From assembly GCF_000208865.1 (NCBI RefSeq), contig NC_018385.1, forward strand, positions 1,842,724 to 1,906,723: a stretch of 64,000 nucleotides of DNA, written 5' to 3'. The notes under the pieces are model-generated. The model was not told the origin of the DNA. It did not search any database and saw only the letters and a list, made by a program, of their open reading frames with translations. The translations under genes and the position numbers were made by a program. Each line of letters opens with the position of its first letter. Within the stretch, counting starts at the first letter, position 1. This document shows positions 8,162 through 33,000 of the stretch, one piece after another. The stretch is from Neospora caninum Liverpool (Eukaryota > Apicomplexa > Conoidasida > Eucoccidiorida > Sarcocystidae).

Positions 8162-10900
8162 ATAAAATAGATTAAGGAAACATAGGGAACAGCTACTACG
8201 TGGTCGTTCTCGTTTAGTGGTTTGCGTCTCTCGTTTCTTCTGCGCGTCTCCCCTCCATGCCCTTTGCCTCCTGCGTTTGCCGTCTCCCAGACTCTTCGCC
8301 CCCTCACTCTCGATGTGTCTGTCTTTCTGTCTTTGGCGTTGTTCCTGTCAGCGTTTCCTTAGGCCCCGCGTCGTACTGCCTCCTTGCCCTCAGTCCTCTG
8401 CTCTTTCTGCAGCGCCTCTGCCTGGTTGGTCTTCGAGACACTAGAGCGCAACTCGAAAGCATGTACCTCTATCGTCGCTGTCCAAACCCGAATTTCTGTG
8501 TCATGCAAGAAAGAAACGCTCTTGGATAAGAAAACGGCGAGGGAACGGGGTAGGCTAGACACCAGCGCACGTTTGCGTTCGTCGCTCGCCGTTGGTCGTC
8601 ATCTCAAACTCTCTCTACTGTGAGAAAGCGAATGCCTTTTAGAGGGAAGAAAACACATGAAAGGCGAAAGATGCGAATATGTTGAAAGTAAGACTGAAAA
8701 GTCTCTCGAAGCCGCACGTCCTGCTCGTCAGCTGAGCGTGGGTGAATGCTGCGTAGACAAGCGAAGGAAATAGCAAGGGAAGAGAAGTGTAAGAGAACCC
8801 GCAAATGTTGTGCTAGCATTGTGCGTTTCCGCTTTTCAAACCACTATCTGGGTGGAATTCGAAAAAGGCAGAAGGAGCCGCATCTGTGTTTCACCTTTGA
8901 GGCACTCTGGTCTGTTACGTGGACTTCTGTGACGGTCGGAGCTCATGTAACTCATGAAAAGGAAGCAGGACTTGTTCAGCCGCTCTTTATTTTCTGTAGC
9001 GTGAACGAGATATGATAGCCGCCCAGTATACTCTCTCACTTAAAAAGACGCTGAGAAGAACTTTCCTCTTCTTCAGTCTTGTCAAATGCTTTCCAAGCCT
9101 CCTAACTATCTGTTTCGTGGACATTGAACACATCAGGGAAGCCAACTCACCAGGGAGCCATTCGTTGCCTTTTTAACTGTGTTAAGCCTATTTCCCTATC
9201 GAACCGGGTTTCTGCCCGTACTCCGCGACTCTTGTTCCGTACTACATAAAAGGGAAGAAACTAAACTGAGCATCGGGGCATGTTAAAGCTCGCCTACGTC
9301 CGTATCCGTGTAGAATACCCGTATGCATCGACCCCACATACCGACGTATATACGTACGGTGGTTTCACCTGTGACGCGTCGTAAAGTACACCGTGGCAGA
9401 CTGAATGCCTCCGTGGACAAATGCGGAGTGAACTGCAGGTGAGGGTCACCCGGTACGTAAAGCATATTCACCGTTTTCGGTTTGCGCTCTCATTGTGGTT
9501 GCCTTTTCCCTCGTCTGTCATTTGGTATGTTCTTCCGACGATATTCTTCCTTTTCTTATTGTTCAATTTCGTCATATATTGGCTTGTCTTCTCCCTAACC
9601 AAGCGTGTTCTCGACGTGTTGCGTTTGAACATCGTTCGTGCCTGAGCAGGAAGACGCACGTTGCTTTTCCCGTCATTTCCACCCAGTAGGTGAGCCCCTT
9701 TGAACATACAATAAGCAACAACACACACGTGTCTTCGCTTCCTTTTTTTCCTTTGTGCCTGTGTCACAGCACCGCAAGATCTACGCTCTGCTGTCTTGTT
9801 TCTCTTCCCAGCAGTCTTTTTTCTCCTAAAAGAAAGAGCGGGAGGAAACGGAAAAGCATAGAGTTTTACCACTAGTTTTGTCGTTCGCCCCTTTGTCCAT
9901 ACCGTAGTCTCGGTTTTGCAGATTTCCCTCTTTGCACGGAAAAGTGGCACAGTCCTGTGGTCGATTTGCTTTATGGTAAATGAACTTCTCCTGACTGCCT
10001 TGTAGGTGAGTTCACCTACCCAGGCTACCGAAGACATATGGACAATGATACGCTTCCTGCGAGAATGACGCTCGTAATTTTCAGTGTATCCCATAGAAGG
10101 ACCGAACCAAGAAGCGAAGACTCCAGTGTACCCTCTTGTAGGATCCAGATAACAAATTGTACTCACCAAGAAGGCGGCGTCAGGGCGCTATGTAGAATAT
10201 AGCAGCGAGCTCGTTCGATGTGTTACAGATCAACTCTTTCCCTATTACACAGCACCGGACTCTGCTGCTGACGCAGCTTGTAGGGTGGTTCTCCCACACA
10301 CCTGGAGGGCGTCCCAGACAGTGCTTCGTTCACAGCTTGCTGACCTCCACCCTTTGCGACAACGCCCAGTAACCCGCCCATCCAGCGGGTCTCGTACTTC
10401 CTGGTAACGTTCATATCAGATTCTGAGCTGATCCTTCCCTGCACCGGCAGTGACTACGGTTCCGCCTCCCTTAGCCCAACCGCCAAGCCCACACTGCGCC
10501 AAATACCGGTGAGACCGAGTAAGGGTTGGCGCTGCATGGAAGACAAACAACCAGTACGTGGCACGCGTGGGTTTGTGGCATTGTCACTCGACGAACCAGT
10601 GAACATATCTGGGTTCCAAGCAAGGTCATCATGAACGGCAGAATCCCTGCCGTTACTACAACCCAGTACTGTTACCAGAGCATACTCAGCGAGACAGACC
10701 ACACATTTTGCTACGATCAGTGCTGGAGAGACTGACCACGTGAGGTGCCACAACGGACCTTCACACTCGAAAAATATATGAGTCACGGTATCCTCCCCCG
10801 CGCTTCACTGCATTCGCTGCAATGCTGCAGAACGGCCAGAACTCGTCGATACCAATCAAGAGGTGCGCTGAGAATTGCACAACAAAAATACGTTTTTCGC
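8162..10900. other. Intergenic region
   Basis: This lies between the membrane-protein gene and the tandem array. The stop at 8161 is followed directly by an ATAAAATAG stretch that may belong to the 3' UTR. A 233-codon open frame on the minus strand (10169-9468) starts at a GTG that looks like a splice donor (GTGAGTACA). It has erratic, basic composition and no recognisable domain, so I do not call it a gene. I see nothing else supportable. Confidence 0.4.
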
Positions 10901-11091
10901 TGAGATAGACGACAAATGAAGTCAATCCCCTCTCCTTGCACTTTGCGTGCTCGAGAGGAGCTTCCACTCGGTCGAGTAGCCAAGGCCCAGTTCCATGTAC
11001 TGCTGCGACGGGACTGGTGTGCAGGTTTGTAATACTTGTAGGGAGATGTAGGGCATTGTTGTAATCAATGAGACACTTCGACCACGCACAC

Positions 11092-31710: not shown

Positions 31711-33000
31711 CTGGCTATATCAAAGTGCTTGCCAAACCCCATTAGTCCGGAATCGATCAGCCAGCACGCCAGCGAAGGTAGCGTGTGCTACCGGAATCTG
31801 CGCGCTATGGCGGAAAGGGGCACTGATCTGACATAGTCGTGGGGAAGTGCATGGCTTTTTGCCGAGGAGCGAGAAAAGTGAGGAAGGTCTTGCGCCTTCG
31901 AAACCGACCATGGTGTGTTTCGATCCTCGTGGTGACACGGGATCAAGTAGACATTTACCACGTTTGGAATATATCAATTGCTAGGGGAACTAACGAGGGG
32001 CATGCCTCGGACGGATGGGACAGGCGGAGTCGGTGGGAAGAGCGCTTGTGGGGCAACAGAATAGCGTGAAGCTGTGCTGCAGGTTGGCGACTCCGAGAAA
32101 CATCAGCGCGGTCGCCGCGGTTGGCGCGATGAGGCGCGAAGCTGGCACAGGAGGGACAGCGCGCTGTCTGCGACGGGAGAACGGTAGAGCGGTCTGTGCG
32201 TAGAGGGGAGGAAGTAGGGACACTAAACCCGACAGGTACGGTTTGAATCGACCCCTGTGCCTCGCGCTCTGCCCAAGAAAACCAATTAAAGATTTTTGTC
32301 AGTAATGTCACTCATATACGCTCCGTCGTACACCGGTATGTCAACGACTAGCTGCTCAGAGACACGCCCATGCGCAGGAGGGACTCATCGTTCAGCGGTC
32401 GACGAGCATGAGTAGCAGTTTTCCTACGGTGGGGGACATTCCGTAAGACAGTTAATGGCCGCAGCCCCAATCGCACACCCGACTGGTAGCCAATGTCTGC
32501 TAGCCAACCGTATCATCTGCAACGTAATGAAGGATGATTTGAGATTCCGAACCGGCCGGCAACCGTGTGGAGAATGTACCTCGTGGACAGTATTTGCCTC
32601 CAGAAGCACAAGCTCCACCTTACATGTGCTCGTGACAGCCTCCATCAGACGTCACAACTGGTGAGCAAGAAAATGACAAAGTGTGACGCCAGACCTCTCC
32701 CTGCAAGGCACAAGTGGACTGGTTGTCACCACGCTGGCCATCCACTGTTACTGCACAGCGGCTGTCTCTGTTGCTGCGGCGCAACTCACCTGTCGCACTC
32801 TCTGCTCAACGGGTTTCCACCAGCTGCCTCTTGAAACAAGCAGAGACGTGCCCAGGTACCTGATTGCTGGCAACGGCCACTATTGTGCTCATCGCAAATA
32901 TCTTGTACTTCAGGGTTCGGTTGTTCGCACTAGCTGCTCCCGTTGCTCCAAAACAGTTCGACTATATAGTGTCGTCTACAGCTCCCCGCGCCACCCTGCA
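31711..33000 (-). repeat. Upstream flank of array copy 3
   Basis: Homologous in blocks to the other two upstream flanks, so the array's repeat unit includes about 1.2-1.8 kb of upstream DNA. It marks the right end of the array. No open frame with splice support was found. It probably includes the promoter. Confidence 0.45.

What the first reader, a model, noticed from the sequence alone, without database searches (positions are those of the whole stretch)
10900..33000. Tandem array of an unrecognised modular secreted-protein family
Three collinear copies of a six-exon gene sit head to tail with start codons at 16784, 24613 and 31710. Two are intact and one is decayed. The intact proteins start with a signal peptide and end in a Pro-rich tail with basic clusters, and I can match neither to a known family. 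Tandem, fast-diverging secreted families in coccidia are often involved in host interaction.
Basis: partly seen in the sequence, partly recalled or inferred. Interest (0 to 1): 0.85.

Follow-up and report, generated by a model that had tools for sequence, protein, structure and literature searches.

The report
KRUF gene array in Neospora
Three side-by-side copies of a gene in a cattle parasite belong to a named but unexplained protein family (KRUF); its proteins appear to be strings of up to four copies of one small folded unit, with features hinting that they leave the parasite and enter a nucleus.

Summary
Three copies of a six-exon gene lie head to tail on the minus strand, starting at 16784, 24613 and 31710. 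Two are open throughout (1018 and 1019 aa); the middle one is a pseudogene (14 of 19 exon indels against copy A break the frame). "Unrecognised family" does not hold: copy A is NCLIV_002020 of Neospora caninum Liverpool, a KRUF gene, from a family named in 2012 without domain or function. What I did not find in print (passages of 8 papers) is the anatomy. Exons 2 to 5 each carry one copy of a ~110-residue domain (leave-one-position-out HMM 35-88 bits; best of 1200 shuffles 12.8). AlphaFold2 predicts a three-helix unit (pLDDT 91), and for a whole Hammondia relative four such beads on disordered strings. No Pfam or PDB sequence match reaches threshold. Domain order most likely predates the Toxoplasma-Neospora split. 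The public model of copy A lacks the signal-peptide-like first exon and the basic Pro-rich last exon. Those ends suggest a secreted protein aimed at a nucleus, perhaps the host's; this is untested. A fourth, apparently intact locus (C11) and a divergent two-domain relative (C12) exist.

The parts
16388..16784 (-). Copy A (NCLIV_002020) exon 1: start codon, signal-peptide-like N-terminus, acidic low-complexity stretch
   Evidence: Spliced model; same start in four Toxoplasma and Hammondia proteins; hydropathy
15604..16080 (-). Copy A exon 2: KRUF domain 1 (core 15671-15997)
14884..15282 (-). Copy A exon 3: KRUF domain 2 (core 14957-15280)
14018..14545 (-). Copy A exon 4: KRUF domain 3 (core 14085-14414), the domain modelled by AlphaFold2
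13238..13597 (-). Copy A exon 5: KRUF domain 4 (core 13272-13595)
11967..12862 (-). Copy A exon 6: Pro-rich basic tail with four conserved short blocks; absent from the public model of NCLIV_002020
19549..24613 (-). Copy B: decayed copy with frame-breaking changes in all six exon stretches
31314..31710 (-). Copy C exon 1: start codon and signal-peptide-like N-terminus
30531..31007 (-). Copy C exon 2: KRUF domain 1
29820..30215 (-). Copy C exon 3: KRUF domain 2
28955..29482 (-). Copy C exon 4: KRUF domain 3
28182..28541 (-). Copy C exon 5: KRUF domain 4
26871..27772 (-). Copy C exon 6: Pro-rich basic tail and stop codon
11089..12400 (.). Block 98-100% identical to 18671-19980 (3' half of exon 6 and downstream), edges approximate: recent gene conversion or an assembly artefact
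18671..19980 (.). Partner block of 11089-12400 at the 3' end of copy B

Best explanation
The array holds two working-looking genes and one pseudogene of the coccidian KRUF family. The protein is a string of four copies of a small three-helix domain, each on its own exon between phase-1 introns, between a signal-peptide-like first exon and a disordered, basic, Pro-rich tail. Most likely it is secreted through the parasite's secretory pathway, ends up outside the parasite in the vacuole or host cell, and uses its basic clusters to enter the host nucleus, where four domains on flexible linkers bind several partner molecules at once. Computed here: identity, gene models, the repeat, a predicted fold, and a domain order shared between genera. 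Inferred: secretion, export, nuclear import, binding. My confidence is about 0.97 for family and architecture, 0.7 for entry into the secretory pathway and 0.35 for the host-nucleus step; the number below is for 'secreted multi-domain protein acting outside the parasite'.
For: Identity: NCLIV_002020, 100% identity over 86% of residues 130-760 of copy A, E=0; the 11 proteins returned by two of three protein searches bear the name KRUF in at least one source (the third search returned none). Repeat: each exon position left out in turn is found by a model of the others at 34.7-87.7 bits, best of 1200 shuffles 12.8 (1187 of them scored). Fold: pLDDT 91.3, pTM 0.72, hairpin plus helices 15-34, 37-51, 59-100; the whole Hammondia protein P0002 is predicted as four beads between stretches of pLDDT below 50, residues 1-157 among them. 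Order: domains cluster by exon position across three species, 4 changes against a shuffled mean of 17.7, as low in 0 of 200. N-terminus: in 7 of 7 sequences a 13-residue stretch starting at residue 3-7 has mean hydropathy 1.80-2.75, and cleavage after residue 14 or 16 fits the small-residue rule. Tail: variants of GKRKAKRKH, SLWxTPV, KKRxLLQF and LPLKKR recur in five tails from two species. Published: NCLIV_002020 and NCLIV_002030 are expressed in tachyzoites and early bradyzoites, and K/R motifs suggested nuclear signals (PMC3310773, passages); 12 of 14 Toxoplasma KRUFs are on in tachyzoites and at least 8-fold lower in merozoites (PMC4340605, passage). Signal sequence, no membrane span and a nuclear signal were three of the four criteria that found the host-nuclear effector HCE1 (PMC6495377, passages).
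Against: The passages read in the 8 papers that name KRUF and gondii give no localisation for any KRUF. The fourth HCE1 criterion, little or no similarity in Neospora, is not met by a family shared with Neospora. The signal peptide rests on hydropathy only; AlphaFold2 draws further helices at residues 35-38 and 42-60 at low confidence, so a membrane-associated form is possible. A simple nuclear-signal pattern is enriched over shuffles in C and the C11 copy (p 0.009, 0.001) but not clearly in A (p 0.07), and is absent from 7 of the 11 homologous proteins, several of them partial. The RRL export motif occurs in 1 of 7 N-termini, copy C. Toxoplasma KRUF transcripts were listed among poorly translated or non-coding RNAs (PMC5725899, passage).
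Confidence: 0.5

Rival explanations
1. KRUF proteins are secreted but stay in the parasitophorous vacuole or cyst matrix, where the basic tail binds acidic partners or membranes; the basic clusters are not nuclear signals.
For: Signal-like start, linkers predicted disordered, overall pI 9.7-9.9 in A, C and the C11 copy; mixed support for the simple nuclear pattern.
Against: Short basic blocks in the tail are kept while much of the rest diverges, which suits a recognised motif better than bulk charge.
Confidence: 0.25
2. The N-terminus is not a working signal peptide and KRUF is a nuclear (for example chromatin or RNA-binding) protein of the parasite itself.
For: Lysine-arginine motifs were read as possible nuclear signals when the family was named (PMC3310773); exons 2-4 are basic, pI 9.1-11.1 in A, C and the C11 copy.
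Against: A hydrophobic start resembling MVxRLA....ALAA, with some substitutions, is seen in 7 of 7 proteins from three species.
Confidence: 0.15
3. The locus is largely transcribed but little translated, a decaying family.
For: One of three window copies is a pseudogene; Toxoplasma KRUF RNAs were listed as poorly translated or non-coding (PMC5725899, passage).
Against: A, C and the C11 copy keep long open frames with dN/dS below 1; 0 of 3 indels between A and C break the frame.
Confidence: 0.08

Closest known systems
[quoted passage not shown]
   Same: Copy A is NCLIV_002020; relatives share start, domains or tail blocks.
   Different: Nothing as to membership; the repeated domain, the corrected first and last exons of copy A and a divergent two-domain relative are not in the passages read on the family.
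Host-nuclear dense granule effectors such as HCE1/TEEGR, GRA16, GRA24, TgIST
   Same: Working likeness only: signal-like start, long disordered parts, basic clusters; HCE1 also has internal repeats (PMC6495377 legend).
   Different: Sequence kinship was not tested and is not claimed; KRUF has predicted folded beads and Neospora members; export is unproven.

Membership tests
KRUF | Sequence similarity to the named members (NCLIV_002020, NCLIV_002030, NCLIV_043740 and Toxoplasma genes) | tested here: met
   100% to NCLIV_002020 over 86% of residues 130-760; 40% and 35% to Hammondia and Toxoplasma KRUFs over 94% and 74%
KRUF | Lysine-arginine rich motifs | tested here: met
   Tail blocks in A, C, the C11 copy and two Toxoplasma proteins; pattern enrichment over shuffles significant in C and C11, not in A
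KRUF | No known domain | tested here: met
   No Pfam family matches more than 1 of 14 domain copies at E 0.1; no match to six copy A exon frames reaches its cut-off; best PDB sequence match E 1.5
Exported host-nuclear dense granule effectors (HCE1 type) | Signal sequence for secretion | tested here: inconclusive
   Hydropathy and cleavage-rule scan only; no trained predictor available
Exported host-nuclear dense granule effectors (HCE1 type) | No transmembrane segment | tested here: inconclusive
   Second mildly hydrophobic stretch, best 19-residue mean 0.80-1.69 in seven N-termini
Exported host-nuclear dense granule effectors (HCE1 type) | Nuclear localisation signal | tested here: inconclusive
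   Conserved basic blocks; pattern enrichment mixed
Exported host-nuclear dense granule effectors (HCE1 type) | Export through MYR1 to the host nucleus | not testable with these tools
   Needs imaging of tagged protein in infected cells

The most novel reading that the evidence does not exclude
KRUF proteins are an overlooked multigene family of exported, nucleus-seeking coccidian effectors built from a new repeat domain: three-helix beads carried on symmetric phase-1 exons, so that domains can be gained, lost or swapped between paralogues without breaking the frame. In Neospora copy A the public gene model hides this, because it lacks both the signal-peptide-like exon and the basic tail exon.
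Probability: 0.3. Interest if true: 0.75.

Novelty: already known. Interest (0 to 1): 0.42.

Why it matters
The family itself is catalogued, so the locus is not a new kind of system. The anatomy makes it testable: a defined domain can be expressed and solved, and the corrected ends of copy A (signal-like start, basic tail) predict secretion and nuclear entry, which its public model cannot show. If KRUFs are exported, Neospora and Toxoplasma share a family of candidate host-nuclear proteins.

Tried and rejected
Rejected: a wholly new family (one search names it). Rejected as the simplest account: a recent lineage-specific burst; domains cluster by position across species, and copy C pairs with Hammondia P0002 at exon positions 2, 3, 4 and 5 (supports 81/60, 94/93, 91/73, 98/90; only the last is starred). 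Against a tidy picture: the position-3 domains do not form one group (2 changes) and position 5 has weak bootstrap (62/98). That tree used 16 of the 31 homologue domains plus 14 from this genome; domains of P0001 (copy A itself), P0003 and P0008-P0011 were left out, and the exon positions of the homologue domains were assigned by me from their order.

Slips of mine: searches had splice offsets wrong by one base for some exons; corrected (A; C), so the copy C rows for exons 5 and 6 are void. One search failed on a wrong option, one search stopped with an error after options that I take to conflict; redone. dN/dS is a Nei-Gojobori count with Jukes-Cantor correction; dS is large (0.65-0.80 overall), so it is rough. 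The C11 exon blocks used omit the split codons.

Full report
What it is. The window lies at C1:1842724-1906723 of a 57.5 Mb, 14-contig genome. Copy A matches NCLIV_002020 of Neospora caninum Liverpool at 100% identity over 86% of residues 130-760, on a contig of 2,288,409 bases, the length of C1, so I take the genome to be that strain. The array is on the minus strand, read from 31710 (copy C) through 24613 (copy B) to 16784 (copy A).

Gene models. A and C each have six exons of almost equal length (397, 477, 399/396, 528, 360, 896/902 bases), GT-AG introns and phase 1 at all five junctions (the last exon of C includes one base that the script left out). The C11 locus (C11:4390500-4399500, L034) has the same six blocks and donors in the same phase, an unresolved exon 3 acceptor and an earlier stop in exon 6; I call it apparently intact. 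The public NCLIV_002020 protein (642 aa, P0001) starts inside exon 1 in another frame, joins late into exon 2 and runs through the exon 5 donor, so it lacks the signal-like start and the tail. The Toxoplasma and Hammondia proteins P0002, P0003, P0006 and P0007 begin with MVxRL as A and C do.

Coding test. Between A, C and the C11 copy, dN/dS over 945-1011 codons is 0.63-0.67 with bootstrap ranges within 0.53-0.79. By exon it runs from 0.44 to 0.83; exon 6 is always high (0.78-0.83), exon 1 0.60-0.79, and single domain exons reach 0.80. This is relaxed constraint, not proof of positive selection. Indels between A and C are 0 of 3 frame-breaking; those between A and B are 14 of 19.

The repeat. 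Exons 2-5 align to one another. A profile built without one exon position finds that position in all three loci at 34.7 to 87.7 bits; the best of 300 shuffles per position was 6.4, 10.2, 6.8 and 12.8 bits. Each of the 11 relatives carries 1 to 4 matches, several being partial models. The authors who named the family scanned it with InterProScan and reported no domain (PMC3310773, passages). In the held library 8 papers contain both KRUF and gondii; I read passages of all 8 and none describes a repeat or domain. Subscription papers are not held, so I do not claim it is unpublished.

Fold. With 14 domain rows AlphaFold2 gives pLDDT 91.3 and pTM 0.72: a beta hairpin and three helices, the last 42 residues long. 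With nine whole homologues, Hammondia P0002 (mean pLDDT 59.3) gives four stretches outside the segments of pLDDT below 50 (158-263, 303-393, 460-574, 610-702), with linkers below it; strands appear in beads 1 and 3 only. The inter-bead arrangement is not predicted (pTM 0.34).

History. A tree of 30 domains groups exon position 2 (98/97), position 4 (98/95) and position 5 (62/98) as single groups and position 3 in two changes, 4 changes for all groups together against a shuffled mean of 17.7. Most simply, the four-bead gene existed before Toxoplasma, Hammondia and Neospora parted. A block of about 1.3 kb at the 3' end of A (11089-12400) and B (18671-19980) is 98-100% identical while the other 200-column windows are 44-81%: recent gene conversion, or an assembly error.

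Family size in this genome. Searches with exon stretches and a Toxoplasma protein found the three window copies, the C11 locus and a weak locus on C12, nothing else at the thresholds used (the tool's counts are lower bounds). The C12 locus (L035, about 3184-5885, +) has a hydrophobic start, one open stretch with two diverged domains (35.6 and 12.2 bits; best of 400 shuffles 10.2, so the second is marginal) and a downstream frame with PLPLKKRKW; the two donors and one acceptor I could read are phase 1, and the last acceptor was not found. Reid et al. list three Neospora members: NCLIV_002020, NCLIV_002030 and NCLIV_043740. That 002030 is C (or B) and 043740 is the C11 locus is my inference.

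How it may work. See Best explanation. The signal peptide rests on hydropathy. Published expression in tachyzoites and early bradyzoites and the tachyzoite-on, merozoite-low pattern in Toxoplasma fit a protein used inside host cells. Against that stand the lack of any localisation in the passages read and the report of poor translation. One Toxoplasma KRUF was among sporozoite-raised transcripts and another had a sporozoite value of zero (PMC5376300, passages), so the members are not uniform.

Verdict. A real, well-read gene array; a known family; a fuller description of its parts; a plausible but untested role outside the parasite.

Noticed in passing
window 39720-39851 (+) and 40451-40560 (-): U4 and U5 spliceosomal RNA genes lie 600 bases apart on opposite strands (Rfam 106.4 and 83.6 bits).
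   Followed up: no
L035:3184-5885 (+), C12: A divergent KRUF-like gene with two domains in one open stretch, signal-like start and basic tail; no match in the protein search with its domain exon.
   Followed up: partly
window 17408-17486, 25227-25305, 32343-32421: A block 72-75% identical lies about 610-710 bases upstream of each of the three starts; possible promoter or 5' untranslated exon.
   Followed up: no
window 21757-21865 and 22853-22961: Inverted repeat, 98% complementary, inside decayed copy B: part of its exon 3 region is duplicated in reverse.
   Followed up: no
window 37308-38558 (-): Open frame of 416 aa with a weak tetratricopeptide repeat match below the curated cut-off.
   Followed up: no
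window 50047-54594 (-): Open frame of 1515 aa with a weak cyclic-nucleotide-binding match below the curated cut-off.
   Followed up: no
window 63445-63806: About 20 tandem copies of an 18-base TCC/TCT-rich unit.
   Followed up: no
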